From Heterotrichella gracilis (lineage: Eukaryota > Sar > Xanthophyceae > Tribonematales > Xanthonemataceae), in the NCBI GenBank assembly GCA_032358255.1, contig JAULBX010004555.1, positions 3,280 to 67,279 on the forward strand: a DNA stretch of 64,000 nucleotides, given 5' to 3'. Position 1 is the first letter of the stretch; the number at the start of each line of letters is the position of its first letter. Positions 1 to 62,531 of the stretch are shown piece by piece. A program made the position numbers and the translations under genes. The notes under the pieces are model-generated. The model had not been told where the DNA came from. It did no database searches and saw nothing but the letters and a program-made list of their open reading frames with translations.

Positions 1-131
1 GTTTTCGCACCTCATGGGAACCTCCTCGATCGCCTCCCACTTGTTCATGCCCATCTTCACCACAAGCGGGGTGTTGGTGTGGCTGAGGGGCCCCTTGGAG
101 CGGTCGTAGTACAGCTGGCACCGGTACCCTA
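1..131. repeat. Direct copy of the 3' half of the CBM53 exon
   Basis: Positions 1-131 repeat 209-339 with only a few differences. The repeat includes the exon end and its GTGCG donor. It breaks off at the same point (ggtaccctac) and probably begins before the window. It could be a decoy or alternative 3' exon of the starch synthase gene. Confidence 0.9.
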
Positions 132-3100
132 CTCTAAATCCTACTGTATAGGAGCGCTACACCCCAAAAAACACCAAAATAACCCCCAAAACCACCAAAA
201 GACACCAGTTTTCGCACCTCATGGGAACCTCCTCGATCGCCTCCCACTTGTTCATGCCCATCTTCACCACAAGCGGGGTGTTGGAGTGGCTGAGAGGCCC
301 CTTGGAGCGGTCGTAGTACAGCTGGCACCGGTACCCTACGGGAACCCTGCCCTCTGGGAGCCAAAAGGTGCCCTGGCCTGCGTTGCGCGCCTTTTCGGCA
401 GCGGAGGTGAGGGTGGCGCTGGAAACCGCCTCCTGGCGAAGCGCCATGCGGGCGACCGCCAATCCGGTGACAACCTGCAAAGAAAAGGGGGAGAAGTGGG
501 TGAAAAGTGGGTGAAATTTGAGCACACATTGGGTGAGGAATGGTTGGGTTTGGCGTGCGATTGCGCGCCTTTTCAGCAGCATAGGTGAGGGTGGCGCTGG
601 AAACGGCCTCCTGGCGAAGCGCCATGCGAGCCACTGCCAATCCAGTCACCACCTGCAAAAGAAAGGGCGAGAAATGGGTGATGATCGGGTGAATTTGAAC
701 ACAATTGGCTAGACCCCACACCCACATCTTTCCCAAAACACCACCACCACGCAACTCACATCAGGAACCTTGTCCACCCTCCTTCCACCTCCGCAGCCGC
801 ACCCCTGGCACCCTCCACAGCCGCAGCCATCGCCCCCTTCCCTGCCCACCTTTGAACCCACACCCACTTCAAAAACACCTTCACCCTCCCAAACACACCA
901 CCACCACCATCACCACCCCACCACAACTCACATCCGCGATCTTGTCCGCCCTCCCCTCCACCTCCGCCGCCGCCCCCCTGGCACCCTCCGCAGCAGCAGC
1001 CATGGCTGCCTCCTCTGCCCGCCTTTGCCCCCCCTGCCGGGCCACAAGCTTTTGGTAGCGCTCGCGCAGCCCTGCCAATTTAGCGGCTGCTTCATCCTTG
1101 TTGGCAGCAACCTCCATCACCAGGGATTGCAGCGCCTCGTTCTCAGACTGCGCCAGAGAAAATGGGTCAGAAATTCAGGGTTTTCATTAGGGTTTTGTTG
1201 GGGTGCAATTTGGGGATTACGGCAACAAGTGCGTGGTAGCGCTCGCGCAATCCGGTCAATTTTGCGGCTGCTTCATCCTTGTTTGCTGCGACTTCCATCA
1301 CCAGGATTGCAGCGCCTCGTTCTCAGACTGCAGGGTTTCGGGGGAAAAGGGTTGGTTAGGGTTTTGATGAGGGTATTTTCGGGTGCAATTGGGGTTTTTG
1401 GGACCAGTGTAGGGTTTCCAGCCAGCTTGGCAGCTGCTTCGTCCTTGTTGGCAGCTACTTCCGTCACCAGGGATTGCAGCGCCTCGTTCTGCGGGGTTTC
1501 GGAGAAAGGCTTGGTCAGGGTTTTGGGGAGGGCATTTTTGGGTGCAAATTAAGGTTCTTGAGACAAGTGTAGGGTTTCAGTCAGCTTCGTTCTTGTTGGT
1601 AGCAACCCGCATCACAGGGACTGATAGCGCCTCGGTTTTTTTACTGCGGCGAGTTTAGATGAAGAGTGGGTGCTCCTGTGCACTTTCACACCCTAATCAC
1701 AAACCCCAAGCCCGCTGCATTCGCTGGCCTCAGCCCCCGTCACATGGCCTCAGCCAAGTCAGGAAGTAATTTTTGCACGGTTTCTCCCCACCTTTAGTTA
1801 TATTGTATAGATATATTATACCCACCTTGAGTTTTTCCAGCTCCTGCATCTGCTTATCAGCCTGCTGGGCCTTGCGTGCTGAGCGGGCCAAGCGGTCCGC
1901 CTTGGCTGCCTCCATGGCCGCGGTGGCGCTGGCCTGCTCCACGCTGGAGATGACCCTACAGCAGTGGTAACAGGTGCGTGTTAAGGTAATCCTCAGGCTT
2001 TTAGGACGTTTTCTTAGCTGTTTTTCTAGGTTTTTCCAAGGGTTTTTGGGTAGGAATTGCGTGTGGACCGGGCCAGGCGGTCCGCATTGGCTGCCTCCAT
2101 AGCAGTGGCGCTGGCCTGTTCCACACTGCAGATGACCCTACCCTAGGGTGCATGTTCCCATACTGACAAGCCTTCGTGTCCTACCGCCACCACCACCACC
2201 CACCACCGCCACCACCACCAACACCCCAGCGCCACTCACTCGTGCGCCTCTATGGGTGCGTTCTTAATGAGCATCATATGCCAGCAGCAACCATGGCAGC
2301 TTTCTCCTCAGCCACATTCTTTAGTAGGGTAGATTAGGGGTTTCGGATAGGGTTTTTCACAGGGATTTTGGCACATGACCCCCACCCCCACCACAGCAGC
2401 CACCACCACCACCACCCATTACTCACTCGTGCGCCTCAACGGGTGCATTCTTGGTCAGCATCTTGCCAGCAGCGATGGTGGCGGCCTTCTCCTCAGCCAG
2501 CTTGCGAGCCAGGCCCTTGGCGGCACTGCGGGGTGGGGGGCGGACGCAGTGTCAGAAGGGTTTTGCGCAAAACCCTATCGATAGGCCGTCGAAACACCTC
2601 CTGGAAGTAGCCACTAGAGTCCACAGGCGCACCTGATCTTGGCCACAATGGCCATGCAGGGGATCCTAGACCCTAACATTTGAACCCTAAACTCTGGACC
2701 CCAAACCCTAGAGGCGCACCAGACTTTGGCCACAATGGCCATGCAGGGGATCGTAATCTCAACATATAACCCTAAACTCTGAACCTTCAACCCTAGAGGC
2801 GCACCTGACTTTGGCCACAATTGCCATGCGCGTGTTGGCGATGGCGCTGTTGGCAGCCCTTGCCTCCTCTGCCTGCCTCTGCATGCGTTCATTCCGCCTA
2901 TTGTCAGCATCCTGAGACGCATCCACCTCCACCTCCGCTCCCCCCTCCACCCCCACCGCTAGTGGCTTGACACCACCGCCCCCTCCTTCCTCCCCTGGGG
3001 GTTTTGCCTTGACCGCGGCGGTGGTTTCCTCCCCTTGCATTTTTTCTGCGGGGGGTGTTTTGCCCTTGGTTGCTTCGGGCGCAGGGGGTGCCACCTTCCC

Positions 3101-6946: not shown

Positions 6947-9900
6947 TTACTCCACACTCTCCACCTTGGTCAGGCGCTCCTCCAAGTGCGCGATGCGTGC
7001 GATGAGCGAATCGCTGGACAGGGCAGACATTGCCTGCACCTTGGCGGGGTCCATCAACTCCTCACCTGAGATTGCAAAAAAAATGATCAGGTCGTAATTA
7101 GGTAACTTTGTTTTTTACAATTTAATAAGACTGAACTACCGTAATTGGTGATGTCATTTGAGGGGGCAGACATTGCCTGCACCTTGGCGGGGTCCATCAA
7201 CTCCTCACCTGGGATTGAAAAAAAATGCACAGGGTCGTAAATAAAGACGTATTTGTGCGACCAAATTAATTGATATTATCATTAAGTCATTGCCCGAGTA
7301 GTAATTACGTACCACGCTGTAAGATCGAGGTTGATTCCTCACCTGGCACGGGCCTGTTCCCGGTTGCGTACATGTCGCGCACCGACTCGTCCAGGGAATT
7401 TAGGGTTTTAGGGGCTGGGTTTAGAGTTTAGGGTGTAAAACTGTTCCTTAACTGACACGGGCCTGTGGCCGGTTGCATACATGTCGCGCACCGACTCGTC
7501 CAGGGTGCTTGGACTTTAGGGTCTCTGTGTAGGGTTTAGGGTTCTCACCTGGCACGGGCCTGTGGCCGGTTGCGTACATGTCGCGCACCGACTCGTCCAG
7601 GGTGTTGCCCACGTAGTTGTCGTAGCCGGTGATCTCCTGGTCAGCAGAGATGCGCAGCATGCCAAGCTTACTGCAAGGGCAAGGGGGTTGCGTTAGCGTC
7701 TGTCGTGTGCGCATAGGATGCACATGGGCGGCACGCCAAGCTTGCAGGGCTCAGGGTTGAGTTTCATAGGGTTTAGGGTTCAGGGTAAGGGTGTTGCCCA
7801 CGTAGTTGTCATAGCCGGTGATCTCCTGGTCGGCCGAGATGCGCAGCATGCCAAGCTTGCTGCAGACAGGAACGAGGGAAGGGGTGTGCGTTAGGGTTTG
7901 CCTTAACATTCGTGCCAGGTGGATGCATATGCCGATTTTGCAGGGCTGATATTCAAGGTTTTAGGGTAAGTGTGTTGCCCACACACTTGTCGTAGCCCAT
8001 CATCTTCTTACCAACTGCAGGTGCACAGCATAGGGCACCCTAAACCCCAAGACGTTTCACTCAACACCCTGAATCCAGGCACCCTGAATGCAGGCCCAGG
8101 ACGCCTTGCTAGGGTTTTTGGCTAGGGTCACCACCCACTCACGCGAGGCCACAGAGGAGCGCCATGCGCCAGCAGAATACTGCAAACCAACCCCAAGCAC
8201 CCTATCATAGAGCAGCTACATGCCACCGCCACATGCGCCTACCCACCCCAGGCGCACCCTAAACAACTACACACTAGACCCTAACACCCCCAGCACACAC
8301 TCACTTGAGGCCACAGAGAAGCGCCATGAGCCAGCAGAATGTCCAGGAGATCATGACAATCTCACCAATCACCTGGCAGGCCAGCAGGCGCCCTGCACCC
8401 TAGAGGGTATTTGACACCCGGAAAACGCCCACACCCAACACCCTAAATCCAGGCGCAGAAAAGGGCTCCTGCCTAGGGTTCTGGCTAGGGTCACTGCCCA
8501 CTTACTTGAGCCCGATGAAGAGCGCCGTGAGCCAGCAGAAGGTCCATGACACCATGATGATCTCGCCAATGACCTGGCAGGCCAGCAGGCGCCCGCCACC
8601 GCCCATGAACAAGCCGTAGGGGCGCTGGTTGCCGCTCACTGGGTTGGTGCCATAGGCCAGGGTCACATACTCAGCCTCAGCAAACAGGCCTGGGAAATGG
8701 GGAGGGAAGGGAGTTTGATTCAAAATTTAATGGTCTCGCACTATCGGGTGGTTGATATCCATGGGTGTTGGGTGTTGTACTGAGGAAGGTGACTATTTCA
8801 AGAGGTAATGATTCTCCCTAGGAGCACATCACAGGGGCGCTGGTTGCCGCTCACGGGGTTGGTGCCATAGGCCAGGGTCGCGTAGTCGGCCTCAGCAAAA
8901 AGGCCTGGAAAAGGGGGGAGGGATTTGGTGCTTGATCCCAAATCAGGCGAGACATCGGCTGACAGTTGGATTCTAGCCATAGGCCAGGGTCACGTACTCA
9001 GCCTCAGCAAACAGACCTGGAAAATAATGGGGGAGAAGTAGGTACAGTACCTAATAGCATTGAGGTGCTTGCTGTCTGAACCAGACGAGTCCTTGACTGA
9101 GGCTTATACGGTTATTGGGGAGTTGTATTAGATTCCATAAGGGGGTGTTAAAGCTCCCCAGGAGCTTGCAGTAGGGGGGCCGCCCACACGGAGATCTCAC
9201 TGGACTGGTGTCTACTTAAGGTTGAGGGTGCTGCCAATCGCCAGGGTCACGTGATTGGCATCAGCAACCAGGACTGGAAATGAGATGGGGAAAAGGTTTA
9301 ATGCACTGTGCAATATTCCTAAGTTGGAAACTCACAAGCCAAGTATACTGGCTTGTGAGTTCAGTATACTCAGCAAATACTTCTTGATTATAGAATGGCA
9401 GTTTCAGCTCCATTTGTGGATAAAAACACCACACATTCCCCGCTATAAACAACCCCCAGAAACAGCATCCCACGGCTAGGGTTTACGGTTAATTGAGGGT
9501 TTGCACAGTCACGCACATAATTCACGAGCACACCAGATTCAGCGTTAAATACTAGGGTTCATTAGGGTTTGGATACAACCCTATACTTACCGACTGAGAA
9601 CACGCCCCAGAGGCCGCACACCAGATGCACACCCACAGTCTCCAGGGGGTCGTCAAGCTTGAGTGTGTGCAGGGCCCAGTGCTTGGCAGGGGGGTAGAGA
9701 AGGCCTGTGTAGGGGGGAAGGAGGAGGATGGTGAACTAGTGTGTGATGTGGGTACCCTAAAATTATAGGTATATGCTGCTTTTCAGCCCCGCACACCACA
9801 CATGATGCTCACAATCACCGCTGCCCATGGTCCCTAGCTAAGGGTTTCATGAAATGCTACGGTTCTCACACCAACTCCCCCAATCACCGCAGCCCATCGG

Positions 9901-12900
9901 GGATGCACCCCACACCCATTGGCGCACACCAACATGCCCTTGAGCAAACCCTAGCCAAGGGTTTCCACCGACCCTTGTGTAATCCAGCAAAGGGGTCACT
10001 ATCCAAGTTTCAGAAATCCATGCTAAGAGTTTCCACCCCACGCACCGCAAACGACGCCCACAATCACCGCCGCCCATGGGGGCAGCACACCACACCCACT
10101 GGTGATTGCAACCAGGCCCCCAAGCACGCCATTGGCACAGGCAGACACGTCCCAGGACATGACCTTGGCCCCGCGCCACTTGGAGAGGATTGCTGAGAAA
10201 AGGAGAGAGACGATTCCGGCTGCTGCTGCCGCGAGGGTGGTGTTGACAGCGGCGATGTTCACCTGCGGGGGGGTGAGGAGCGGGGGTGAGGAGGAGTGAG
10301 TAAGGGGTGTGAGGAGGTGGTGTTGATGGTGACAACGGAGGGGTGCTAGGGTTGAGGCATTTGGAGTTTTGATGGGCTTCCAAGGTTGATTAGGAAACAT
10401 TTTGTCCAGGCACAGAAAGACAACGCTGCCTTTTTTGGTCAAATACCTTATTCGAGGACCTTGCGACACACTACAGGATTCCTTCCAGGATGCCCCTCCC
10501 ACCATTGCAATGCATTCGAAAATGGTCAGGTCACTAGGATGTTGTGTGGGGTTCCCCTAGAGTTAGGGATTTTGCAGGGTGTACGCCATCCTTATCGCAC
10601 CGTTGCGGAGTATCCGACGATGGCCAGGGCCGAGCCGGGGTTAAACCCATACCAGCCAAACCACAGGATGAGCACTCCCAGCATCTCAAGGGAAGCAGAG
10701 TGGCCGGGCATGGAGCGGGGCTCGCCGTTGGAATCAAAGCGCCCCAGGCGGGGGCCGGTAACCAGCATTGCTGCGAGGGAGGCGGTGCCGCCGTTCACGT
10801 GCACCACGCCAGACCCTGCAAAGTCAATCATGCCGGAGCCCAGGAAGAGCTTGCCTGCGCTGGGGACCCTGAAGGCGCCCAGCCAGCCTGCGGGGAGGAG
10901 GTAAGGAGAGTGGGAATCAGTTCCATTCAACTAGCAATGACAAGGTCAGCAGGGGATCCCCTTCCGGAAGGGGTGTGCGTGCACGAAACGCTGTGAAGGG
11001 GGTGGGTAGGGAAGGAAGGGTTCAGTAGGTTGCTAAGCCAATTATTCCAAAGCCAAGGAAGAGCTTGCCTGCGCTGGGGACCCTGAAGGCGCCCAGCCAG
11101 CCTGTGGGGAGGGGTAGGGAGGGATGCTGGGTTTGAGAAGCAGTGGAAGGATATTGTGGGGGATGCAGTGACCGATACACCCACGTAGACATCAACAGCT
11201 CACAGGGAAGTTACCTTAAATTGCACTGCAGGTTACCCTATACCGTAAACCTAAACCCTAAACCCTGCATGTGGTGCGTACCAGCTTGGGTCCATGTCCA
11301 GTGCACGAACCTTAGGTACACCCACATGGACACCACAAAGGCAAACCCTACCCCTAAACCCTACAAACCCTGCATAGGGTGCGTACCAGCCTGGGTCCAC
11401 GTCCAGTGCACGATGACTGGATACACCCACGCGGACATGAACAGCGCAAAGATGAGGTAGCCCTCGATCTTGACTTTCTCGGCAAAGCCTCCGGCGGTGA
11501 TGGTGGTGGTGACGGCGCAGAACTGCACGACGTGGGGGCATGGGTGGGTGATGGAAGGGACCATTCTGTCCTTGCACCGGCGACCAAAAAAAACTATACC
11601 ACAGCAAAAGGGTTACCCACTCACCAACATCCCGGGTGAGCAAGCACACTCTAGTGCCCACGTTACAGAAGCCTTGAACAGCATCTCAGCAGCGTCCTTG
11701 AGCAACACCCTAAACACCGTACAATGCCCTGGAGCCACTCCCTAGCAGCATTTGAGGAACACCCTAGACACCCTACCAGGACCCTTGCTACCCTAACAAG
11801 CAATCTGGCCTTGGTGCCTGTACGCACCACATACTGGAAGTACCACAGGTACCAGCCGTTCTGCACGTAGGGCGCGGAGGTGGACGGGGGGTCGTTCTTG
11901 AGGGCAAACCACTGGGTACCAATGAACCCATTGCCGGTGTTCGAGCAATTTTCGCCGTTCTCGTCGCACGTAAACTTGTCCCCAAAGGCAATACCCCAGC
12001 CGAGGAAGTAAAACCCTAGGGCGGCCACGCAGGCGTCGGAGATGTTCATGAGGATGATGGCCTTGGCGTTCTTCTTGCGGAGGGCACCGGCGCACAGCTG
12101 CAGGTGGTGGAATGGGTGGGGGTTAGTTGACGCAACATTGTTCCAGGGGTGGTATGAGAGGCCTGAGGGGGTGTATTGGGGGGGAGGGGGGGTAAGGGGG
12201 GGAAGGGGAGGGAAGGGGAGGGGAGAGAAGCAAGGGGAGTGGGGGAAGCATTGTTTTAGGGTTTGTGACTCGAGGTTGTTCATGAATACAATGGCCTTGG
12301 CGTTCTTCTTGCGGAGGGCACCAGCCCACAGCTGCTGGGGTGGGGAGGGGGAAATTGGTGGGGATGGGGGTGGTAGTTAATTGGCCAACTGTGAGCAGGG
12401 CCCAGTTGATGGGTTTGCAGACGTTGCGAGTGTGGGTTGCGTTCGAGAGGGTGGGGCCATTGGAGGGGGAATAACAGCATGGAGGGGGGGCGCTCAGCTA
12501 TATGGGGTGGGGATGGTGGACGGGTGGATATAAGAGGTCGAGAGGGTGTGGTGGACTATGTGGAGGTTAAAGTGCATGGGAATGTGGGTGGGTGGGTAGC
12601 ATGGGTACAAACAGGACGTGCACACTTGCACACTATGGCGGACGTGGGGTGGTGGTGGGTGGGGCTCCCTGAGGGTGACTAGATATCACCAAACTGCCAC
12701 GCGTCAACAAGCAATATCCACACCGCCCCCCACACATGCGGGCACAGGGCACGTGGCGCCAAGAGCATCGATATCGCCCACATTGAACGTGTACGAACGA
12801 TACACCACGACCTGCGATGCCCGTAGTGCACCACGTGTGATTGGATGCACGTGGTGGTATGTTTAACAGACCCAAACATGCTATCGATGCCCATGGACGT

Positions 12901-13123
12901 CTGCCAATCGTGTGATAATGCACCAGGGTCGCATCGAAGCTCGGGATGCAGCTAGGCGCGAAGCTGAATTGAAGCACACTCGTATACACCGTACCATGGC
13001 GAAGCCGGCTTGCATGAAGAAGACGAGGTAGCCGCTCATGATTGTGAAGAAGTTGTTGACGTCGATGGTCATGTTGGCCACCTGGGTCTGGAGGTCCTCC
13101 AGCGTGACAGGTGCGGACGCCAT
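6947..13123 (-). CDS. AMT: Ammonium transporter (AMT/MEP/Rh family), copy A
   Basis: Membrane channel-type carrier for NH4+/NH3 uptake at the plasma membrane, or possibly the chloroplast envelope. Nine exons: 12,995-13,123; 11,828-12,097; 11,387-11,522; 10,601-10,887; 10,046-10,262; 9,591-9,704; 8,506-8,689; 7,549-7,670; 6,947-7,065. They sum to 1,578 nt, or 525 aa plus stop. Family marks seen are FTIMSGYLVFFMQAGFAM in the first exon, DFAGSGVVHVNGGTASL with the first pore His, VGVHLVCGLWG with the second pore His, and LRISADQEITGYDNYV in the cytosolic C-terminal tail. Length fits the family (about 450-550 aa, 11 membrane helices). The start is the first ATG of an open exon and matches copy B. 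The protein is nearly collinear with copy B at 20.8-25.3 kb, but it has one extra intron (7,066-7,548) in the tail. Almost every intron holds exon echoes. Confidence 0.96.
7155..7507. repeat. Exon echoes filling the copy-A-specific intron
   Basis: 7,155-7,215 repeats the start of the last exon (7,065 side) with its acceptor. 7,340-7,395 and 7,455-7,507 repeat the end of exon 7,549-7,670 with its donor. The intron (7,066-7,548) therefore consists largely of copies of both flanking exons. The spacers contain ttagggtttta-like DNA. Confidence 0.93.
7788..8035. repeat. Two echoes of the tail exon 5' end
   Basis: 7,788-7,866 is a near-perfect copy of the start of exon 7,549-7,670 with its acceptor (ccaagcttgctgca). 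7,968-8,035 is a much more decayed second copy. Confidence 0.88.
8130..8405. repeat. Two echoes of the membrane exon 3' end
   Basis: 8,290-8,405 repeats the 3' part of exon 8,506-8,689 (cacttgaggccacagagaag and onward). 8,130-8,185 is a shorter, older copy. Donor-like CTCAC/CTTAC edges are kept. Confidence 0.88.
8825..9285. repeat. Three echoes of the membrane exon 5' end, graded in decay
   Basis: 8,825-8,912, 8,976-9,022 and 9,236-9,285 repeat the start of exon 8,506-8,689 with its acceptor (caaacaggcctgg). The nearest copy is longest and most alike, the farthest shortest. Confidence 0.9.
9330..9363. repeat. Short perfect-stem hairpin in an AMT intron
   Basis: actcacaagcca and tggcttgtgagt form a 12-bp perfect stem around a 7-nt loop. 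Its role is unknown. Confidence 0.8.
9788..9945. repeat. Two echoes of the exon 10,046-10,262 3' end
   Basis: 9,788-9,830 and 9,863-9,945 repeat the sequence around tcacaatcaccgccgcccat of the true exon end. Copy B has independent-looking copies at the matching intron. Confidence 0.85.
11046..11350. repeat. Echoes of two AMT copy A exon edges
   Basis: 11,046-11,110 repeats the 5' end of exon 10,601-10,887 almost perfectly (aggaagagcttgcctgcgct). 11,270-11,350 repeats the 3' end of exon 11,387-11,522 with its gcgtacc donor edge. Confidence 0.9.
12262..12345. repeat. Echo of AMT copy A exon 2 start
   Basis: The copy repeats the 5' end of exon 11,828-12,097 (ccttggcgttcttcttgcgg) and its acceptor side. 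No equivalent is seen in copy B. Confidence 0.9.
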
Positions 13124-20808: not shown

Positions 20809-23800
20809 TTACTCCACGCTCTCCACCTTGGTGATGCGCTGCTCAAGGTGCGCGATGCGCATGAGCAGGGCGTCGTTGGAGAGGGAGGCCATGGCGGCGG
20901 CCTTGGCGGGGTCCACACCAGTCTCCTCGCCAGCCACGGGCCTGTGGCCGGTTGCGTACATGTCGCGCACCGACTCGTCCAGGGTGTTGCCCACGTAGTT
21001 GTCGTAGCCGGTGATCTCCTCGTCGGCGGAGATGCGCAGCATGCCCAGCTTGCTGCAAGGGGAGAGAGGGAAGGGGTTTGCGTTAGGGTTTGTGCCAGTT
21101 GGATGCATATGCCCAATTTTGCAGAGCTTGGGGCTGGTTTTTTAGAGCTTGCTGCAAGGGGAGGTGGGGAGGGTTTGGAAGTTGAGAGGAGGGGAGGTTA
21201 GGGCAACTGCTATGCGGGCCAGAACCCTAAGAACCCAAGGCAGGGCGGTGTGCGGACGCGCAATCTTGCGAGGCCAATGCTTTACAAGTTAAGTGCATTT
21301 GACCAACAGAAATGCAGACTCAGCTGTATGGTGAGCCTCAACACCATATGGCACTACATGCCCCGAGGGCCGAATAACGAGCACGGCGGGCTGGGTAAGG
21401 GTTTAGGACGTGTAGCAAAACCCTAACAAGCTACGCCCATCACACTTACTTGAGCCCGATGAAGAGCGCCATGAGCCAGCAGAAGGTCCATGAGATCATG
21501 ACAATCTCACCAACCACCTGGCAGGCCAGCAGGCGGCCGCCACCGCCCAAGAACAGGCCGTAGGGGCGCTGGCCACCGTTGGCGGGGTTGGCGCCATAGG
21601 CCAGGGTCACGTAGTCGGCGTCAGCAAACAGGCCTGTGGAAAGGGGGAGAGGGATCAGAGTTGAGCATGAAATCTGGTTGCTATTTGAGGGTCCAAGTTG
21701 ATCCTTTTTACAATACATTATGCCAGGGTCACGCGTCCTCTTATGCACAAGCGTCAGCAGCCAGGCCTGGTGGTGGGCATAAGAGTATGGGATATACAGC
21801 AAGACATTGAAGACAGCGTTGAGAGGCTGCACATGGCCACTTGCCAGCATGGTTTACACAGAACAACAAACCTTCACGCCACCACAACCGCTGAGGGGCC
21901 AACAAACCATACGCACCCTTGCTCTCCTTGCAAGGAAGGAGAATCACGCTCCCCAACCATCCCCAAGTACATAAGGGTTTAGGATAAACTTGTCACACTC
22001 ACCGACGGAGAACACGCCCCAGAGACCGCACACCAGATGCACTCCCACAGTCTCCAGGGGGTCATCCAGCTTGAGTGTGTGCAGGGCCCAGTGCTTGGCA
22101 AGGGGGTAGGCAATACCTGCGGGAGAGGGGAAGAGGGAGTCAGAGTGTGGTTGATGGAGGAGAGGGTGCAGGGAGGGGCGCCTTGTGCACTGCATACCTG
22201 GCCATGCAGCAATGGCAAAGTCTGCCCAACTGTTTTCACGAGGGTATCCCAGCCGTCAACCGCAAAACACCAAACAATTGAATAGTTGTCCATCCCCAAC
22301 AATGGCTCAGCGTCTAACTGCACCGCACTACACACCACGACTCGTAGCACACAGCAAACAATGGTTCCTCCACCACTGCTCACTATGCCCAGGAGGGCAC
22401 CAACCTAGCCCTAAAAGATTTCCGCCACCACGCACCGCACAACATGCCCACAAACACCGAGGTTCTGGGGGCAGGATACCGCACCCACTGGTGACAGCCA
22501 CCAACCCCTCATCGCACCCTAGCTAGGGGTTTCCATTCAAAATGAAGAGTTCACGCACCGCAGACAACGCCCACAACCATCAAGGCCCTAGGGGCAGGAT
22601 ACCGCACCCACTGGTGACAGCCACCAGGCACCCCAGCACACCCTAGCTAAGGGTTTCCATCCAAAACCACAAGGTTTACGCACCGCAGACAATGCCCACA
22701 ATCACCGCCGCCCATGGGGGCAGGATACCGCATCCACTGGTGACAGCCACCAGACCCCCGAGCACACCATTGGCGCAGGCAGACACGTCCCAGGAGGCCA
22801 CCTTGGCGCCGCGCCACTTGGAGAGGGCAGCTGAGAAGAGCAGGGAGACCACTCCCGCAGCGCCTGCCGCGAGGGTGGTATTGATGGCAGCGATGTTCAC
22901 CTGCGGGATGGGGGTGGTGGATAAGGGGGATCCGGACAGCGAGCGAGCGTGTTGGTGTGTGTGTGTGTCCTGTTGGGGCTTAGCGGTGGGACACGTGTGT
23001 TGTGGGAGTGCCAAGTGAGGCGGGTGGGGGGCAGCAGGGGTGAGTGGGGAGGTGGTGTTTTGAGGCTGGTTTAGGTTACTGGAGATGACTTGGGTACCAG
23101 GCATAAAAGGATGATACTTTTGATCAAGGCCTCATTCCAAGGCCCTAGGGACACATCAGGGTTTCCTCCAGGGTTTTAGGGTTTCCCCCGCACCGTTGCG
23201 GAGTACCCGACGATGGCCAGGGCCGAGCCGGGGTTGAACCCATACCATCCGAACCACAGGATGAGCACTCCAAGCATTTCAAGGGAGGCAGAGTGGCCGG
23301 GCATCGAGCGGGCCTCGCCATTGGAGTCAAAGCGCCCCAGACGGGGTCCGGTAACCAGCATAGCGGCAAGGGAGGCGGTACCACCGTTCACGTGCACCAC
23401 GCCGGATCCGGCAAAGTCCATCATTCCAGAGCCAAAGAGGAGGGGTCCGGACTGGGGGATGCGGAAGGCGCCCAACCAGCCTGTTGAAAGAGGGGTTAAG
23501 GGTGGTTACAGCACATTCAGGCAGCAGTGACCAGGTCAGCAAGGCAAGGGGGGCAGATTGTGAGCTAGCGGGCGTCAGTATGTACGGCGTACACTGCATA
23601 AACGCAAGAGAAAGCGTATGAGTGGTGCCAGCGCCACGAGAGGGCTGGCTGGTGCAATGTAGGTAAGGCAGGCGGCCAACCTGGCTATATTGCCAGAGCG
23701 CAATGCACCAGACAAACGCGCAAGAGGGTGGTGGGTGTGGGGCGAGAGATTGTGGATCTGACTGGGTCCATGTCCAGTGCACCATGACTGGGTACACCCA

Positions 23801-25277
23801 CCAGCACGTCTGGCAAAGGCAACCACAAACCCTTCACAGGGTTTCTGCACCTGACTAGGTCCATGTCCATGTCCAGTGCACGATGACTGAATACACCCAC
23901 GCATATTACCCTAAACCCCAAGTCGTTACCTAAACCCTCATTAGGGTTGCGCACCTGACTGGGTCCATGTCCAGTGGACAATGACTGGGTACACCCACGC
24001 AGACATGACCAGGGCAAAGATGAGGTAGCCCTCGATCTTGACCTTCTCGGCAAAGCCTCCGGCGGTGATGGTGGTGGTGACGGCGCAGAACTGTGAGCGG
24101 GGACAGAGGGGGTGAGAAGAGGAGGAGGGGGGACGCAAGACAGGGGTAACAAGCGCTCATAGCATACATCTGAAGTTTGCAACCCTCCCTGCACCTAACA
24201 CAAACGCGTGCAGAATGCCTGAACAAGCCAGGCACCTGCACTGCACATACCAAACCCAATACCCTGCCAGCAGTAGAGTGGCATCCTACCAGCCCATGAG
24301 CAACACCCTACCACAACCCTCGAACCCTACCAGCACTGAGCACACACGTACCACATACTGGAAGTACCACAGGTACCACCCGTTCTGCACGTAGGGGGCA
24401 GCGGTCGCTGGGGGGTCCTTGCTGAGCGCCCACCACTGGGTGCCCATGAAGGGGTTGCCATTGTTGTAGCAGTTCTCGCCATTCTCGTCGCACTCAAACT
24501 TGTCCCCGAAGGCAATGGCCCACCCAAAGAAGTAGAAGCCCATCGCGGCCACGCACGCGTCGGAGATGTTCATGAGGATGATGGCCTTGGCGTTCTTCTT
24601 GCGGAGGGCACCGGCGCACAGCTGCATGGGAAGGGGGGAGGGTTCAGTGGTGGGTGTGACAGGCCAATCAGGAGTGCCTGGGTGGTTGTCGAGTGTGGGT
24701 CCAGAAGCCAACAGGCAGCGTGGGGTGTGGGGTGTCAATGACGGCTGAAAGGCTCTGTAAGTGGAGGTATCACGATATGGAGTGTTTTGTGTGTGGGTGA
24801 GCAGCTGGCGTGCCTGGCCAGGGTGGATACAGTCAGGCAGTACGATAGTGGTGGGTGAGGCAACAGCTGAGACAGGGAAGGAGGTAAGCATTGGGCTGAA
24901 GAGGGAGGGCAAACAAACTCGGGTGGAGGGTGGGGAGGGTAGCCTAGGCTACTTGCTGGGGCAAAGTCCCTAACAGTGTTCATCGTGGCACCAACAGAGG
25001 CCACTGATCCAGTACACCCGATTAGCTAATTAAACGCGTTAAAGGGATAGGTACGTCTTCAGTTCGAAGGCCTTCGTTGTCAAAGGGTTTGGGAGGGCAA
25101 AGGTTGGGTGGAATGTCGTCGTACCATGGCGAAGCCTGCCTGCATGAAGAACACGAGGTAGCCGCTCATGATGGTGAAGAAGTTGTTGACATCGATGGTC
25201 ATGTTGGAGATGGAGTCGGAGTTGGCCTGGACCGTCTCGGCCAGGGACTCCAGCGTGAGTGGTACGACGTCAGCCAT
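20809..25277 (-). CDS. AMT: Ammonium transporter (AMT/MEP/Rh family), copy B
   Basis: Second ammonium uptake carrier, paralog of the gene at 6.9-13.1 kb. Eight exons: 25,125-25,277; 24,352-24,621; 23,955-24,090; 23,194-23,480; 22,684-22,900; 22,003-22,116; 21,450-21,633; 20,809-21,052. They sum to 1,605 nt, or 534 aa plus stop, with all phases consistent. The first seven exon boundaries equal those of copy A. The last exon is continuous where copy A has an intron. Signature DFAGSGVVHVNGG lies near residues 208-220. The second pore histidine is in VGVHLVCGLWG near residue 381. The cytosolic tail reads LGMLRISADEEITGYDNY. The N-terminus is 8 residues longer than in copy A. The two copies share 3' flanking blocks, so the duplication included the 3' UTR. 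The regulatory nitrogen response cannot be read from sequence. Confidence 0.97.
21130..21770. repeat. Echoes of two AMT copy B exon starts
   Basis: About 21,130-21,170 repeats the acceptor edge of the last exon (agcttgctgcaaggggag). 21,722-21,770 is a decayed copy of the 5' end of exon 21,450-21,633 (gccagggtcacg...cagcaGccaggcctgg). Confidence 0.72.
22430..22660. repeat. Two echoes of exon 22,684-22,900 3' end
   Basis: Copies at 22,430-22,525 and 22,552-22,660 repeat the exon end with its cgcaccgca donor edge and ggcaggataccgcacccact body, at about 120-bp spacing. Each is followed by an accctagctagggg-type palindromic spacer and a gtttcca block. Confidence 0.92.
23757..23907. repeat. Two echoes of exon 23,955-24,090 3' end
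   Basis: 23,757-23,815 and 23,845-23,907 repeat 'ctgactgggtccatgtccag' and the following exon sequence, including the donor edge. Confidence 0.92.
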
Positions 25278-52941: not shown

Positions 52942-55900
52942 TTAAAAACCCTTGGAGTCAGCCACCCCCTGCTGCTCTGCAGCCACGGGGGAGGAGGCCC
53001 GCGGGGGCTCGGTGGGCGCGGGTTCAAACTGGGGGGGTGCGGGTTTGATCTGGGTTTGCTCCACAGGGGTGGCCTGCCTGGCCCTGGATGGTGTGCTGGT
53101 TTCGGAGCTGGATGGTAGCCTGGCTGATGCTGCGCTGCGCTGCGCTGCGTCGCTGAGGTCGGAGAACTTGGAGCCCACGGCGTCGGCAAATGCCTGCACA
53201 AGAAAGGGTATTGCTATGTTTCACCTACTTGTAGCCACGCGCATATCAATTGGTGCATTATCTGTGGGCTGTCAAACTCTGCCAGTTGGACTATGCAGTG
53301 ACTATCCTTAGCCACGAGCATATCAAAAGGTGTCAGTCAGTATCTGTGGGCGAGGATGCGGCCAGCAGCCTAGACAAACTCCAGGTTGTGTACCATATAT
53401 TTAAGACCACATTTTCAAACCAGAGATGCGTGTTCAATGACTACAATGAGCCATGATCATATTTACTGGTGCATTACCTGTGGGCTCTCAAACTCTGCCA
53501 GCTTGGAGTATGCGGTGAGGATGAGGCCCGCAGCCCCGATGAACTCCAGGGTTGTGTGGTAGTTGTAGGCCGCCACCCCCGCCCCCACTATGGCGCCGAT
53601 GGTGGCCACGATGGTGGTGGTGACCGCGGTGGCGCGTTGCGGGTCCTGCGGTGGGGGGTGTTTAGGCTTTAGGGTCAGGGATAGGTTTAGGGTTTAGGGG
53701 GTGGTCACAGTGCGCACAGACGGGGGCATCGACTACACCGCCGGGGCGCTGGAGGTGCTTGCCGACGATGTTGAGGCAGCGGTGGAGGAGGTGTTGGTGT
53801 TCCTGGAGGGGCTCAAGGTGGCATGCTGCAGGTCCTGCCATGGGGTGTGGGGGGTGAGGGTGGCGGGTGAGATGTGTGTGGTGGGTGTGTGGAGGGCGAG
53901 AGGGATAGGGTAAACACGGTGGCTGCGGGTGGTTGGGGGTCTTGCAGTGGGGAGCGTGGGCTGCGGGTGTTGATGGTGGAAATGTGTGTGTGTGCGTGCG
54001 CCTCCAGGGGGGGGAGAGGGGTACTCACTCAAGCACCCCCCTCCCCACCCATCCCTCCCCACCCACCATCCTTAAGCCCCTCTAGAAACACCGACACCTC
54101 CTCCCCAGCCTCAACTCGTCAGCTAGCAACCTCCAGCGCCCCAGCAATGTAGTCGATGCCGCCGGCCAAATGCACATCCAAGATTAGCCTTCAAGTGCCA
54201 TGCTAGCCTTGCCGCTCTAACACCCTTCACAGAATGTGGATTATCATAGCCACCCACGTTGAGCCCCTCCAGGAACACCGACACCTCCTCCACCGCCGCC
54301 TCAACATCACCGGCAAGCACCTCCAGGGCCCCAGGGATCGACTCAAATTCCAAAAATACTTCCTAAAAACCCAAATTACCAAAACCACTAAATTTCAAGG
54401 GGGTCAACCACCCACCTTGAGCCCCTCCAGGAAAACCGACACCTCCTCCACCGCTGCCTCCACATCGTCGGCAAGCACCTCCAGCGCCCCAGCGGTGTAG
54501 TCGATGCCCCCGTCTGTGCGCACGTTCAGCCCGCTGTCCACCCATGCCCTGAAGCCGCCCTCTATCACAAACACGCGCGAGAGGCCCAGGGAGGTCACCG
54601 CGCGGGCTATCTTGACCGAGTTCTCGCCCTGCAGTGGTTGCGGTGTTTCAAAAGTTTGGTTCGGTGAGGATGCACATTTGGATGGAGTTTTGGATGGGGC
54701 GGTGGGTGGGGCATAGGGTTTTGTGGAGCGGGATTTACGGGGTTTTGTGGAGTGGGTTTTGCGGGGTTTTGTGGAGTGGGTTTTGCGGGATGGGTAATCA
54801 GCTTCTCCCACCACAGATACAGCGATGGGCCCGGGGAGGTCACAGGGTGCTCACCTGTGTGTCCAGTATGACGAGCTTGGTGTTTGGCTCAGCCTTGGCC
54901 AGGTTGGAAACGGCCAGGGATTTAGAGTTCAGTGCTTAGGGTTTTGAAGGTCAGATTTCGGGGTTTAAGGGTTCAGATTTGAGGGTTTTAGGGTTTTCCC
55001 GCTCACCTGTGTGTCCAGTATGATGAGCTTGGTGTCTGGCTCAGCCTTGGCCAGGTTGGAAATGGCCAGGGATTTAGAGTTCAGTGCTTAGAGTTTTGAA
55101 GGTCAGAGTTCGTTTTTTGGTTTTAGACTTCATATTTGAGGGTTTTAGGGTCTTCCCGCTCACCTGTGTGTCCAGTATGATGAGCCTGGTGTTTGGCTCA
55201 GCCTTGGCAAGGTTGGAAATGGCCAGGGATTTAGAGTTCAGTGCTTAGGGTTTTGAAGGTCAGAGTTCGGGGTTTTAGAGTTCATATTGTAGGGTTTTAG
55301 GGTTTCCCTCGCTCACCTGCGTGTCCAGTATGATGAGCTTGGTGTTTGGCTCAGCCTTGGCTAGGTTGGAGATGGCTGGGTTTTTAGGGTTCATAGTCTA
55401 GGGTTTTAATGATTCAGAGTTTAGGGTTTAAGGGTTTTGCCGCTCACCTGTATGTCCAGTATGATGAGCTTGGTATTTGGCTCAGCCTTGGCCAGGTTAG
55501 AGATGGCCAGGGATTTAGAGTTCAGTGCTTAGGGTTTTGGAGGTCAGAGTTCGGGGTTTCAGGGTTCAGAGTTTAGGGTTTTAGGGTTTTCCCCGCTCAC
55601 CTGTGTGTCCAGTATGATGAGCTTGGTGTTTGGCTCAGCCTTGGCAAGGTTGGAGATAGCCAGTGCGGTGGTGCTCACAGCCAACTCATCGGGGTTGCGC
55701 ACGCTGCAGGGGGGGAGAGGAAAAGGGTGAGGAAAAGGCAAGAGTACAGTTTTGTGGTAGGGTTTTGCTAGGGTTGTCCCTCTTCTGTGCATGGTGCTCA
55801 CAGCCAACTCATCGGGGGTGCGCACGCTGCAGGGGGGGAGAGGGAAAGGGGATGAGAAGAGGCAAGAGTGCACCTTTGGTAGGGGTTCAGAGTAGGGTTG

Positions 55901-58900: not shown

Positions 58901-61900
58901 GGAATCAACGGTGTGGTGACATCTGGCGCAAGCTCCAGCAAGGGCTTGGGTGTGGGTGTGGGGATATCCACAGGGGCAGGAGTGGGTACTGGGGCGGGGG
59001 TGGGGATGGTGGCTTCCACCGGGGGAGGAGTGGGTACTGACGCAGGGGGTGGTGTGGTGGCCTCCACCGAGGGAGGAGTGGGTACTGGTGCAGGGGTGGG
59101 GATATCCACAGGCGCAGGAGTGGGTACTGGTGCAGGGGTGGGTGCGGCGGCTTCCACCGGTGGAGGAGTGGGTACTGGTGCAGGGGTGGGGGTGGCAGCT
59201 TCCACCGGAGAGGGAGTGGGTACTTCCACAGGCGCGGGTGGTGGTGGTGCGGTGGTGGGGGTGGGGGCGCTTTCCACTGCCGGTGCTTTCACCGCTTCCT
59301 GTGCCGGTCCTCTGTTGAGTGCAGAGGTGAGGGCGGTGAAGCTGTTCTTGACCTGCGAGCCAATTTGCTGGTTTAGGGTTTGCCGTTTAGGGATTAAGGA
59401 GAGTGCACAGCTGTGCGAACCGCAGTGCGCTGTGTAGCCAGGGGCACTCAGATGATCTGGAGATATTTGATTCGGGCCCAGTGTCCTTTGCAGCTCAGCA
59501 CAGCACCCAGTCTCCCCTCCAGTCTTCCAGGCGGATGCCATCCACCTAGAAATGCCATATGCTTCCACATGGGGGCATAGAGTCATATGCCCTCCTATGG
59601 GGCTGATATAGAGTCATGTGCACCAGTGGCAATTAGTACCCCTATGATGCATCCCACCCAAACCCTGCGAGCATGCCATCGCAACCATAAAGTGCATGCC
59701 CCCAAAACCCTACCTGTGACGTCAGCTCAGCTGCAGCCTCCAGGGTATCCTCCACCGCATCCCCAATTGCCTCGGTGGCCCCACTCACAGCAGCGCCCAG
59801 GGCCTCACTGGTGCCGCTCACCGCACCGCTCAGGGCATCTGGCACCTGGAGGGGGCAGCGTTCAGGGTTTTGGTTCCAGGCACTAGGAGTGAAAAGAGAT
59901 TCTTTTTTCCAACAAATTCCTTTGACATGGCAGACTTTCTGTTTTTATAAAAGGCTTTTGTTGGCATACAGCTCTGGCTGTACTGCTAAAAAGCATGCAA
60001 TCAACTTCTGAACTCAACCACAGGGCCTGGGTCTTACAAGGGTTATTACCTGTGACAATCCCGACTTGGGTCCGCCTGGGAGGTCTGGGAGCGATGGCGG
60101 CTCATAGGGCAGGGCAGGGGGCTCCGCGATGTAATCTGAAACCAAGGGGAGGGAAGGGGGGTTGCAATGTAATATGGGGAGGGAAGGGGCGCAGCCCTAA
60201 ACCCTAAACAGCTGCGACGGCGTAACGCTGGACGGTTCCAGCGATCAACCCTTAACCCCAAACCCTGTGGTGTTATGTGGCGCCAGCTGTCCTCACCACC
60301 ATGCACAGGGGTGCAGGAATTTCATGGGGCATTTCCTTTGCTGCCTGGCCACATTTGGTCGGCAGCTGGCTATAGCCTTACCCAGGGGACGGGCGCACCC
60401 CTACAATCCCTGCACATGGCCATAAGGCAGTACTGGAGAAAAACTGTTCCAATCACTCCCTGAGGGCCCTTTGCAGGTGACACAGGGTTGTGTGCGTCCC
60501 TTGCCTGTTTTCACCTAGATCAACTATGGCCAGACATCATTGAAAGGCAGGTCCCGGAGCATGGGCTGCGCTGGGTTGGACACCTGGGGCATACCACAAG
60601 ATGATAGCCTGTCCAAATGCATGCGGATTGGTAAAAGAAACTCTGAAAAATGGCGTACACAACACCGTGAACCCTACTGCCCCACCTGGAGTGCTCACTG
60701 CCAATGTTGCTGGCATGCATGCAAGGGTAATGAAATAACATTGGGTCCTCTTATTATCGAATCACCCCTGACGCATGTACCCAAGTTGGCCACAAAGAGC
60801 AAGTTGGACCACAAAATACCAGAAAACATGCAGCTTCTGCAGCAACAAAACCCTACACCCCAACCAAACCCTACAATTCCCTAACCAGCTCCTTTGAACC
60901 TCACCACCGCACCTTCAATTCTACACCAAAAACACCAAAACCCCACCTGGAATCGCCACCCCTTGTTGTGAAGCGCTCCTGACTCACACATAATCCACTC
61001 CGGCACATTCTAACCCCACACCCCGCACCACGAAACCCTAGCACCCCCCCCTCCACGACCGCTTTTCTGTCTGTACCTCTGACCCGCACCTCACTCGCGT
61101 ACTTAACACATGTATCCCACAGTTGCCCCACCTGGGATTGCCACCTGGACGCTCCTGTCCCCTTGGTAGGCTCCTTGAGGACCCCTGACTCCCCAAACCC
61201 TTCACCCCAACACAAACCCTAAAGTGACTATAACAAGCTCCTCTGAACCTCAAAGCTTATCCAAAAAACACCTAAAACCCCACCTGGGATCGCCACCCTG
61301 GACGCCCCTGTCCCCTTGGTAGGCTCCTTGAGGACCCCTGACTCGCGCATGATTTCTTCCAGCACATTGCGCACCCCCGTGGTGGCCTGCAAGGGGGACA
61401 GATACATGGTAAATGCACAAAGAACGGGAGGAAAACGACAGGCATGTCGAACCCCAGTCATGGCCTGAGTGAGGAGGCCATGGGTATGGGGCTTAGGGAG
61501 ACACCGTGGGTGTGCATACAAGGGGAGGGAAACACTGCAAATGCTGTGCGCTAACACATCCCTGGCCCCAGTAATGGCCTGCAATTGGGAGGCATAATCT
61601 GTAAATGCAGAAAATCTGGAAGTGGACCTATGATCTAAACCCCCCAGGTAAACAAATCCAATGCACAACTGCATGAGGGCTTGCGTGGTGCAGATGTAGG
61701 GTATTGATCAGGAGCAAAGGGCTTTGCAGGTCCCTACCTCCTTTGCTGCCTTGGTTGTCTCCTCCAGTGACGTCCCCGACGCCTGTGATGCAGCCTCTGC
61801 CACCTTGCTGCCACCTGGCATGGCCACACAGCCGATTACATCAAACCTTAGCGCAGGCAACTCAAAATCCTAGTGCATGCACGCCACCTTGCTGCCAACC

Positions 61901-62531
61901 GGCACAGCCACAAACCCTAGTCACAGGCGGAATCAAACCCTAGCGCAGGCAATGCCAACCCTGGTGCGTATCTACCCTGCCTCTGCCACCTTGCTGCCAC
62001 CTGGCATAGCCACAAACCTTGATACATGCAGCACAAGGGTTTACAGCAGGCAAGGCAACCCCCTACTGCATGCCTGCCACCGCCGCCACCTGGCACAACA
62101 GCAAACCCTAAAATAAGCAGCACCCAACCCTTGCGAGGGCAGTGCTACATGCAGAACAAAACCCTTGCCCAAGCTGTAAAAACCCTAATGCAGGGTGCTT
62201 CACTTCATCCGAAACCGCTGCTGACCCGCCCTTGACGCGTCTTGAAGCAGGGAGTGCATGCAAACCCTAGTGCCCTCGATAAAACTTTAGTGCTGGCGTG
62301 GCCTAAAGAGGGCATTGTTGTTGCCCTAAGGATGAAGTTGTTTCCCCTGCATACCTTGCTTGCCTGCCGCTTTCACTTCGTCCGACACCGCTGCTGGCAC
62401 GTCCTTGATGGCATCCTGAAGCAGTGATGACAGGTCGGAGGTCCACTCAGTGATAGGGGCCGTGGGTGGCGCCTCAGCCACCGCCTCAGTCGCTTCTACA
62501 GCCGCTGACACCCGCAACCGCCTGCCAGCAC
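52942..62531 (-). CDS. CAS: Calcium-sensing receptor, thylakoid (CAS), 5' end unresolved
   Basis: Thylakoid membrane protein of chloroplast calcium signalling, photoacclimation and, in algae, the CO2-concentrating mechanism. Exons: 62,355-62,531; 61,738-61,814; 61,284-61,386; 60,050-60,135; 59,714-59,845; 58,866-59,352 (or from 58,890); 58,198-58,520; 57,686-57,790; 57,067-57,249; 56,249-56,385; 55,601-55,703; 54,416-54,628; 53,478-53,645; 52,942-53,193. They give 847 aa in phase. The first exon, with the transit peptide, was not found. Order: Ala/Glu helices; a Pro-Thr-Ala-Val repeat tract; amphipathic SGA...SVAKTQE repeats; a membrane helix and YGGYAGKLSPVQAL, as in plant CAS; a rhodanese fold (LLVDVRSDAVREADG, KLIILDTQGENSVKIAR, VFVIEGGFRAWVDSGL) without the catalytic Cys, as in CAS; a second hydrophobic segment; and a Ser/Pro tail. 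It is much longer than plant CAS (about 390 aa). Confidence 0.88.
53250..53400. repeat. Two echoes of exon 53,478-53,645 end
   Basis: tctgtgggctgtcaaactct and neighbours at about 53,255-53,295 and 53,333-53,395 copy the exon end with increasing divergence. Confidence 0.85.
53705..53822. repeat. Inverted copy of the CAS rhodanese exon end
   Basis: This stretch encodes TDGGIDYTAGALEVLADD on the plus strand, opposite to the gene. It is about 115 bp of exon 54,416-54,628 in reverse orientation, the only clear inverted exon copy in the window. Confidence 0.93.
54070..54345. repeat. Two direct echoes of the rhodanese exon end
   Basis: 54,070-54,170 and 54,250-54,345 repeat gagcccctccaggaacaccg and the following exon sequence. 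Confidence 0.9.
54849..55600. repeat. Five-copy tandem echo array of a CAS exon end with donor site
   Basis: Copies of the last 70 bp of exon 55,601-55,703 plus donor start at 54,855, 55,007, 55,164, 55,317 and 55,448, at about 130-157 bp spacing. The spacer gatttagagttcagtgctta is shared. Each copy keeps an intact exon|GTGAGC junction. Confidence 0.96.
55790..55978. repeat. Two echoes of CAS exon 55,601-55,703 start
   Basis: cacagccaactcatcggggg at 55,797 and a decayed version at 55,935 repeat the exon start and gcgcacgctgcagg acceptor. Confidence 0.92.
56540..56815. repeat. Echoes of CAS exon 56,249-56,385 start
   Basis: 56,540-56,600 copies gtcaaccaggagtgaggact and the acceptor. About 56,780-56,815 is a remnant. 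Confidence 0.83.
57500..57560. repeat. Echo of CAS exon 57,686-57,790 part
   Basis: acacgcctgacgtcattgat and the next 20 bp match the exon at 57,713-57,760. Confidence 0.85.
58010..58118. repeat. Echo of CAS exon 58,198-58,520 end
   Basis: About 100 bp, from the cacgcaccgcgcc donor edge through the exon end, is repeated with roughly 15% change. Confidence 0.93.
58660..58715. repeat. Echo of the Pro-rich CAS exon end
   Basis: gggatttcccgcaggctgcc and following sequence repeat 58,866-58,910. Confidence 0.92.
58945..59235 (-). repeat. CAS: Coding minisatellite: Pro-Thr-Ala-Val repeats in CAS
   Basis: Tandem units of about 48-60 bp encode PVPTPAPV-type repeats (VEATTP, VDIPTP variants). They remain in frame, so this is a protein repeat tract and not an echo. 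Confidence 0.9.
60940..61200. repeat. Two echoes of CAS exon 61,284-61,386 end
   Basis: 61,127-61,195 repeats ccttggtaggctccttgagg and its donor. 60,943-60,985 is a shorter, older copy. Confidence 0.9.
61875..62240. repeat. Echoes of two CAS exon edges
   Basis: The ccaccttgctgccacctggc acceptor block of exon 61,738-61,814 recurs at about 61,884, 61,987 and 62,078. 62,193-62,240 copies part of exon 62,355-62,531 (cacttcatccgaaaccgctg). Confidence 0.85.

What the first reader, a model, noticed from the sequence alone, without database searches (positions are those of the whole stretch)
1..62531. Exon echoes: introns built from decaying tandem copies of neighbouring exon edges
In all seven genes, most introns carry one to five copies of the adjacent exon's end or start, with the splice site included, in direct orientation. 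I count at least 60. Copies usually grow shorter and more diverged away from the exon. Spacers are rich in TTAGGG/CCCTAA-like motifs. Ordinary TE insertion or exon shuffling does not give this edge-anchored, graded pattern. It suggests a continuing local process, such as tandem duplication or templated repair at double-strand breaks, tolerated only outside coding sequence. I know of no description of it at this density.
Basis: partly seen in the sequence, partly recalled or inferred. Interest (0 to 1): 0.93.

Follow-up and report, generated by a model that had tools for sequence, protein, structure and literature searches.

The report
Exon-edge copies growing inside algal introns
In a green alga, many introns have been lengthened by repeated local copying of the neighbouring exon's edge, often joined through telomere-like DNA, which gives a readable record of how introns grow.

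Summary
In three genes modelled exon by exon (two ammonium transporters here, MnmG elsewhere), 30 of 30 intron copies of exon sequence match the adjacent exon in direct orientation; shuffled introns give none. Fourteen of 22 introns carry copies; copies plus spacers make up 4612 of 11540 intron bases. Ten genes picked by protein family gave 19 more, all direct and adjacent, in 7 of 10 genes. Telomere hexamers are at chance in exons, about tenfold enriched in introns and densest at copy junctions; exon breakpoints carry telomere-like microhomology. In the 11 youngest pairs the spacer matches neither flank, as if inserted, though some older units look like plain tandem duplications. Best reading: error-prone local repair duplicates flanking DNA, often with telomeric filler or microhomology. 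Copies spanning a splice site survive because the outermost site still yields the intact exon, so edge anchoring is a selection sieve. The ingredients are known; the density and telomere link I found nowhere in eight searches. No sister genome was available.

The parts
6947..13123 (-). AMT1, ammonium transporter gene, 9 exons (13123-12995, 12097-11828, 11522-11387, 10887-10601, 10262-10046, 9704-9591, 8689-8506, 7670-7549, 7065-6947), all introns GT-AG
   Evidence: Pfam PF00909, open 525-aa model, best named homologues (Ostreobium) at 46-48% identity
20809..25277 (-). AMT2, ammonium transporter paralogue, 8 exons at the same intron positions, lacking AMT1 intron 8
12277..12331 (-). copy of AMT1 exon 2 start (acceptor edge) in intron 1, 89%
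11282..11332 (-). copy of AMT1 exon 3 end (donor edge) in intron 3, 80%; weaker second copy at 11174-11205
11031..11101 (-). copy of AMT1 exon 4 start in intron 3, 90%
9874..9922 (-). copy of AMT1 exon 5 end in intron 5, 84%; second copy at 9804-9830
8833..8904 (-). copy of AMT1 exon 7 start in intron 6, 92%; further copies at 8976-9014 (97%) and, more decayed, about 9226-9272
8320..8399 (-). copy of AMT1 exon 7 end in intron 7, 86%
7788..7858 (-). copy of AMT1 exon 8 start in intron 7, 96%, ending in ACACCCT then TACCCTGAACCCTAAACCC; older copy at 7969-8031
7343..7507 (-). two copies of AMT1 exon 8 end (7452-7507 and 7343-7396, both 96%) in intron 8, with telomere-like spacers
7164..7208 (-). 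copy of AMT1 exon 9 start in intron 8, 45 of 45 identical
23758..23903 (-). two copies of AMT2 exon 3 end in intron 3 (23865-23903, 23758-23801)
22436..22642 (-). two copies of AMT2 exon 5 end in intron 5 (22559-22642, 22436-22508), carrying AMT2-specific bases
   Evidence: bases compared by eye
54849..55663 (-). array of about six copies, 131-157 bases apart, of a putative exon end with GTGAGC donor (read by eye) and telomere-like spacers; gene not identified
29274..29453 (.). young pair (95%) with a 51-base spacer holding 14 telomere hexamers and no match to either flank; no gene model
61126..61344 (.). young pair (96%) with an 86-base spacer, 8 telomere hexamers, no match to either flank; no gene model

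Best explanation
Introns in this green alga grow by accretion at their ends. Shown: short stretches (about 30-110 bp) at an exon-intron junction exist again in the adjacent intron, always in direct orientation in the genes examined, usually separated from the original by about 20-200 bp of spacer that is often telomere-like. Inferred: each arises when a break or stalled fork near the junction is repaired with duplication of the flanking strand (fill-in of a staggered break, or re-priming a short distance back on the same template). Telomere-like DNA either supplies the microhomology or is inserted as filler, possibly by telomerase. The outermost splice site still gives the intact exon, so the inner copy is neutral and decays; the process then repeats, pushing older copies inwards. 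Duplications inside exons are purged, which creates the edge anchoring. Unequal exchange or conversion between exon and copy probably adds copies and refreshes parts of them.
For: 49 of 49 copies (30 curated, 11 chaperonin, 8 synthetase), in 10 of the 13 genes examined, are direct and adjacent; 0 inverted. Largely neutral-looking decay: splice dinucleotide lost in 10 of 30; differences at codon positions 1/2/3 are 71/59/148, against 33/18/107 between AMT1 and AMT2 exons. Nearest copy scores best on 11 of 12 edges. Introns with copies are longer, median 539 (n=14) v 353 (n=8), p=0.018, and 40% of intron length is copies plus spacers. Telomere hexamers: introns 31.8/kb, exons 3.3/kb; 81 of 600 positions within 20 bp of the junction, 10 of 406 at 100-120 bp. 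Inner versus outer side of pairs within 15 bp: 40 v 15 per kb in 20 blocks, 68 v 10 in the window. Telomere microhomology at 26 exon breakpoints, permutation p=0.0006. Eleven youngest pairs: none spans its full period, none has a spacer matching a flank beyond shuffles. In ten family-chosen genes, copies and telomere density go together (7 v 3 genes, p=0.008).
Against: In 4 of 15 testable two-copy edges the spacer does match the sequence beyond the copy, as in a plain tandem duplication (three more at p 0.02-0.03), and 3 of 12 neighbouring spacer pairs match; several neighbouring spacers are nearly equal in length (117/109, 110/107, 105/106) without a detected match, as if homologous but badly diverged. 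Of the nine single-step young pairs, five have no or one telomere hexamer in the spacer and four have 5-14, so telomeric filler is not general. Telomere density does not separate introns with and without copies inside the three curated genes (p=0.26). Outer flanks are partly coding, which inflates the inner-outer contrast; the intron-only comparison is milder: 112 per kb at the junction, 91 beside the true splice site, 62 beyond the copy. Spacers diverge faster than the 2:1 expected under uniform neutral decay. Longer introns also have more room for copies. No sister genome or second individual was available, so no empty site was seen.
Confidence: 0.68

Rival explanations
1. Plain tandem duplication by replication slippage or unequal crossing over, without break repair or telomerase; telomere-like motifs are only a common intron sequence that offers microhomology, and spacers look unrelated because intron DNA here changes very fast.
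For: Some units repeat spacer and copy together (4 of 15 two-copy edges, 3 of 12 spacer pairs; AMT2 intron 5 and the chaperonin gene on C902). Some neighbouring spacers are equal in length though not alignable. AMT1 and AMT2 intron flanks are near random (20 gaps per 100) although their exon edges are 92% identical.
Against: None of the 11 youngest pairs (93-98% identical) spans its period, and their spacers match neither flank; the 98% pair in L039 is the clearest.
Confidence: 0.22
2. The copies are kept by selection, as alternative exon ends, decoy splice sites or regulators.
For: Splice dinucleotides persist in 20 of 30; copies keep few indels (12 gap openings, 278 substitutions in 1975 aligned bases) and stay sharper than spacers.
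Against: Third-position share 53% in copies against 68% between AMT1 and AMT2 exons; my own unsimulated neutral estimate is about 46%. At least one copy has an in-frame stop and 10 of 30 lack the splice dinucleotide. A copied edge brings only one of the two splice sites that an exon needs (inference).
Confidence: 0.05
3. Introner or transposon insertion with target-site duplication.
For: Direct repeats flanking an insert is the layout of a transposon insertion.
Against: Copies match only their own neighbouring exon (49 of 49). Window 1-3000 searched against the whole genome matched only itself and ACC-type simple sequence (a lower bound).
Confidence: 0.03
4. Assembly artefact, for example two alleles or read-loop copies placed side by side.
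For: The stretch just before the window reads N (gap or withheld), the window holds 10 N, and repeat-rich blocks lie mostly on shorter contigs.
Against: AMT copies span 71-100% identity, occur in direct orientation only, and in 10 genes on 8 contigs. The exons of AMT1, AMT2 and MnmG read open.
Confidence: 0.02

Closest known systems
[quoted passage not shown] 2009, PMC2671141; passages seen)
   Same: Copies of nearby DNA (mean 162 bp), microhomology and filler at breakpoints, attributed to break repair
   Different: There single events found in interrupted transposons, donors up to 5 kb away, tandem duplications within 50 bp excluded, one exon copy inverted; here all direct, mostly within 420 bp, repeated at the same exon edges, with telomere-like junctions
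Interstitial telomeric repeat insertion at double-strand breaks, mammals (Nergadze et al. 2007, PMC2246262; human and horse 2020, PMC7215372; passages seen)
   Same: Telomeric repeats at repaired breaks, nucleotides in register at the break, sometimes direct duplication of the flank
   Different: There arrays of four or more units, duplication alone at 3 of 66 horse loci; here short, often degenerate motifs with long flank duplications
Tandem duplication across an intron-exon boundary, potato RdRp gene (PMC4974935; abstract seen)
   Same: Duplicated stretch crosses the splice junction and becomes intron sequence
   Different: One case, forming an additional intron; here tens of cases lengthening existing introns
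Novel intron positions by tandem duplication in Drosophila (PMC2891723; passages seen) and intron gain in break repair in Daphnia (review PMC3443670; passages seen)
   Same: Exonic duplication or staggered-break repair turned into intron
   Different: Those create introns, at AGGT or with short repeats; here existing introns are lengthened
Direct repeats near intron splice sites (Rogers and Bendich 2025, PMC11782384; abstract seen)
   Same: Direct repeats at intron borders read as traces of break repair
   Different: Repeats of 4-30 bp between the two borders of an intron, 213 introns of many taxa; here 30-110 bp copies of one exon edge inside the intron

Membership tests
Repair-mediated duplication (Pace 2009) | donor within 5 kb | tested here: met
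   131 of 149 direct pairs under 1 kb lie less than 420 bp apart; none at 1-10 kb in the window
Repair-mediated duplication (Pace 2009) | microhomology or filler at breakpoints | tested here: met
   telomere-like microhomology p=0.0006; unmatched spacers in 11 of 11 youngest pairs, but 4 of 15 two-copy edges without filler
Repair-mediated duplication (Pace 2009) | copies can be inverted (one exon case in the passages seen) | tested here: not met
   0 of 49 gene copies inverted; 149 direct, 6 inverted pairs in 306810 bases
Repair-mediated duplication (Pace 2009) | empty site in a relative | not testable with these tools
   no relatives of this genome are held
Interstitial telomere insertion at breaks | array of several exact telomere units inserted | tested here: inconclusive
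   junctions hold mostly short or degenerate motifs; arrays of five exact units away from contig ends exist but were not compared with copies
Interstitial telomere insertion at breaks | break site in register with the repeat | tested here: met
   p=0.0006 over 26 breakpoints, any telomere match within 6 bp; register proper needs the empty site
Intron gain by AGGT tandem duplication | new intron bounded by the duplicated AGGT with exon parts in the swapped order | tested here: not met
   AMT1 intron 8, absent from AMT2, has CAG|GTGAG at both ends but its exon copies lie on the same sides as their exons
Introners | one sequence family in many introns | tested here: not met
   each copy matches only its own adjacent exon, apart from the AMT1-AMT2 paralogy; spacers were not searched genome-wide except within window 1-3000

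The most novel reading that the evidence does not exclude
Telomerase takes part in repairing breaks near exon edges in this lineage: it extends broken ends with TTTAGGG, the ends re-prime on nearby CCCT or GGGT, and the flank is copied. Introns would then be in part a fossil record of telomerase-assisted repair, and the inserted C-rich strand may even supply pyrimidine tract and branch-point-like CTAA near the acceptor.
Probability: 0.3. Interest if true: 0.88.

Novelty: new variant of a known kind. Interest (0 to 1): 0.68.

Why it matters
Where intron sequence comes from, apart from transposons, is seldom readable. Here a large share can be traced to the neighbouring exon and placed in order of age, so intron growth, the local mutation process and its repair pathway can be measured directly. 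The link to the telomere repeat offers a concrete, testable mechanism. Practically, such copies carry splice sites and coding-like sequence and may mislead gene predictors.

Tried and rejected
Simple tandem duplication as the only process: rejected for the youngest pairs, kept for some units. AMT1 intron 8 as an AGGT-type newborn intron: the order of exon copies does not fit. Functional constraint on copies: not supported by codon positions. Introners and transposons: no shared family of copies. Bacterial contigs as the cause of quiet blocks: the 20 blocks do not look prokaryotic (cover by ORFs of 150 aa or more 0.10-0.65; a bacterial-type contig, L035, 0.84). A coding-potential score trained on AMT genes did not explain quiet blocks (rho 0.14) while telomere density did (rho 0.88; 26 blocks, six of them from the window); that score missed the MnmG block, so it is weak. 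L025, a block without local repeats, does hold genes (PCI, MatE), so not every gene is affected. Clustering of mismatches within copies is modest (combined p=0.009 over 24 copies), a hint of conversion only. Pfam scans of minus-strand frames found only the ammonium transporters; one minus frame of 1-15000, one of 49000-64000, the stretch 45000-49000 and the plus strand were not scanned. The species was not identified: the ribosomal RNA search did not complete.

Limits: five of the seven genes were not modelled. The ten family genes were taken from the many matches because they show several matched exons on one contig (6 of 14 contigs, 4 of 12), before their repeats were looked at; their exons are bounded by domain matches, not splice sites, and exons without a match are unseen, so 'adjacent' means no matched exon in between. 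One of the 8 synthetase hits is only 21 bases and 1.5 kb away, and two domain pieces were treated as one exon there. The test used six hand-entered chaperonin edges and no synthetase edges; that did not include the synthetase loci. The 18 intron-exon matches between AMT1 and AMT2 reflect paralogy and were set apart.
Full report
WHAT WAS CHECKED. The window lies in a 68.5 Mb assembly of 903 contigs. The best named relatives of MnmG from the same genome are green algae at 80-84% identity, and those of the ammonium transporter are Ostreobium proteins at 46-48%, so this is a green alga, species unknown. Self-comparison of the window gives 79 direct pairs within 1 kb, 6 inverted, none at 1-10 kb, and 23 beyond 10 kb, 22 of which join the two ammonium transporter paralogues. 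Twenty 10-kb blocks from other contigs give 88 direct and 0 inverted pairs within 1 kb; shuffled blocks give 0. Fourteen of the 20 blocks have at least one pair, six have none.

GENE MODELS. AMT1 (9 exons) and AMT2 (8 exons) read open with GT-AG introns. MnmG in L023 (8 exons modelled, partial gene) was found by Pfam and reads open. BLAST of every intron against every exon of its gene at 34 bits or more gives 14 copies in AMT1, 4 in AMT2, 12 in MnmG. All 30 match an adjacent exon, none is inverted. Restricted to the 22 complete introns the count is 29; dinucleotide shuffles give 0 adjacent and 0.025 other hits per round. Sixteen copies are of donor edges and 14 of acceptor edges. Copies are present in 14 of 22 introns.

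A SAMPLE NOT CHOSEN BY REPEATS. Six chaperonin-family genes gave 11 copies in 4 genes, all direct and adjacent. Four class I synthetase genes gave 8 in 3 genes, likewise all direct and adjacent. They were taken as multi-exon matches of two families before their repeats were seen. The seven genes with copies have 7.3-27.8 telomere hexamers per kb outside the matched exons; the three without have 0.0, 3.0 and 4.9 (exact p=0.008).

DECAY. Differences between exon and copy fall at codon positions 1, 2, 3 as 71, 59, 148, that is 53% third positions, against 68% for AMT1 versus AMT2 exons (33, 18, 107); my own rough neutral estimate is 46%. At least one copy has an in-frame stop, and 10 of 30 have lost the splice dinucleotide. 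On edges with several copies the nearest scores best in 11 of 12. The exception is AMT2 exon 3. Subtracting the copies' units, AMT1 intron 8 (483 bases) leaves a core of 134 between its innermost copies; over the three genes the summed distance to the farthest copy is 4612 of 11540 bases. AMT2 copies of exon 5 carry AMT2-specific bases (by eye), so they postdate the split of the paralogues or were homogenised since.

THE TELOMERE LINK. TTTAGGG is the telomere repeat: exact arrays stand at the starts of C70, C140, C526, C609, C717, C770 and C824, with others inside contigs. Telomere hexamers occur 3.3 per kb in exons, close to chance for 14 hexamers, and 31.8 per kb in introns. They peak at the interior junction of copies: 81 of 600 positions within 20 bp, 30 of 600 at 20-40, 35 of 534 at 40-60, 7 of 508 at 60-80. 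Across all pairs the inner side is richer than the outer, 40 v 15 and 68 v 10 per kb next to the copies, with backgrounds of 6.8 and 15.0; within introns of the three genes the contrast is 112 at the junction, 91 beside the true splice site, 62 beyond the copy. At 26 non-redundant exon breakpoints the longest telomere match is 3.85 on average against 3.19 at random positions of the same exons (p=0.0006). Telling cases: MnmG exon 8, where GTGACCCT of the exon continues in the copy as AAACCCTAAACC, and a chaperonin exon, where CCCTACACCCT of the exon is CTCTAAACCCT followed by AAAACCCCTAACCCC in the copy. Block by block, telomere count and repeat cover correlate at rho 0.88. Within the three curated genes, introns with copies are not significantly richer (p=0.26).

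HOW IT WORKS, AS FAR AS SHOWN. A plain tandem duplication should, when young, match over its whole period. Of 11 pairs at 93% or more, none does, and no spacer matches either outer flank beyond shuffles; two of the 11 bridge an intermediate copy and one is cut by the window edge. Clearest is L039: 57 of 58 bases identical, then 55 bases of unrelated spacer without telomere motif. Against this, 4 of 15 testable two-copy edges and 3 of 12 neighbouring spacer pairs do show spacer homology, and some neighbouring spacers are equal in length without a detected match, so whole-unit duplication happens too. The gap rate jumps at the splice site, from 2-4 to 11-22 per 100. Since AMT1 and AMT2 intron flanks look nearly random while their exon edges are 92% identical, intron DNA here changes fast; but copies at 96-100% beside spacers at roughly 60-83% need more: filler, hypermutable spacers, or refreshment of copies from the exon. 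I cannot decide among these.

WHY AT THE EDGES. A duplication within an exon breaks the protein; one across the junction leaves the exon whole if the outermost splice site is used; one wholly inside the intron is harmless but both copies decay, so it is soon lost to sight. The sieve yields edge anchoring and outward ageing without any splice-site-directed mechanism (inference).

LITERATURE. Eight searches of one open library found single or small sets of boundary duplications and each ingredient (see closest known; only abstracts or passages were seen), but no genome described with this density or with telomere-linked exon copies in introns. Subscription papers are largely not held, so the claim is limited to these searches.

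Noticed in passing
G000 contigs C1, C68, C111, C442: Long uninterrupted reading frames of tubulin/FtsZ and synthetase families suggest prokaryotic contigs in the algal assembly.
   Followed up: partly
window 6947-13123 and 20809-25277: Tandem ammonium transporter paralogues share all intron positions except AMT1 intron 8, which AMT2 lacks: gained or lost since the split.
   Followed up: partly
introns of AMT1, AMT2, MnmG: In the last 50 bases before the acceptor, telomere hexamer positions are C-strand 32 times and G-strand twice (overlapping hexamers counted), as if the C-rich strand were useful or the G-rich strand harmful there.
   Followed up: no
all sampled DNA: Distance between copies peaks at 180-220 bp with a broad shoulder at 80-180, near a nucleosome repeat length.
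   Followed up: no
window 53710-54523 and 16151-17400: The six local inverted repeats found in the window lie in these two stretches.
   Followed up: no
window 5688-5888: A 48-bp minisatellite with AACCCTAAACCCTA in its consensus unit, apparently between genes.
   Followed up: no
window 47339-48921, minus strand: Reading frames that look like RCC1-type repeats with a proline-rich stretch (recalled resemblance; no domain search was run there).
   Followed up: no
L009, L012, L013, L014, L025, L027: Blocks without a local direct repeat, all on contigs of about 180 kb or more; L025 contains genes, so copies are unevenly spread in the genome.
   Followed up: partly
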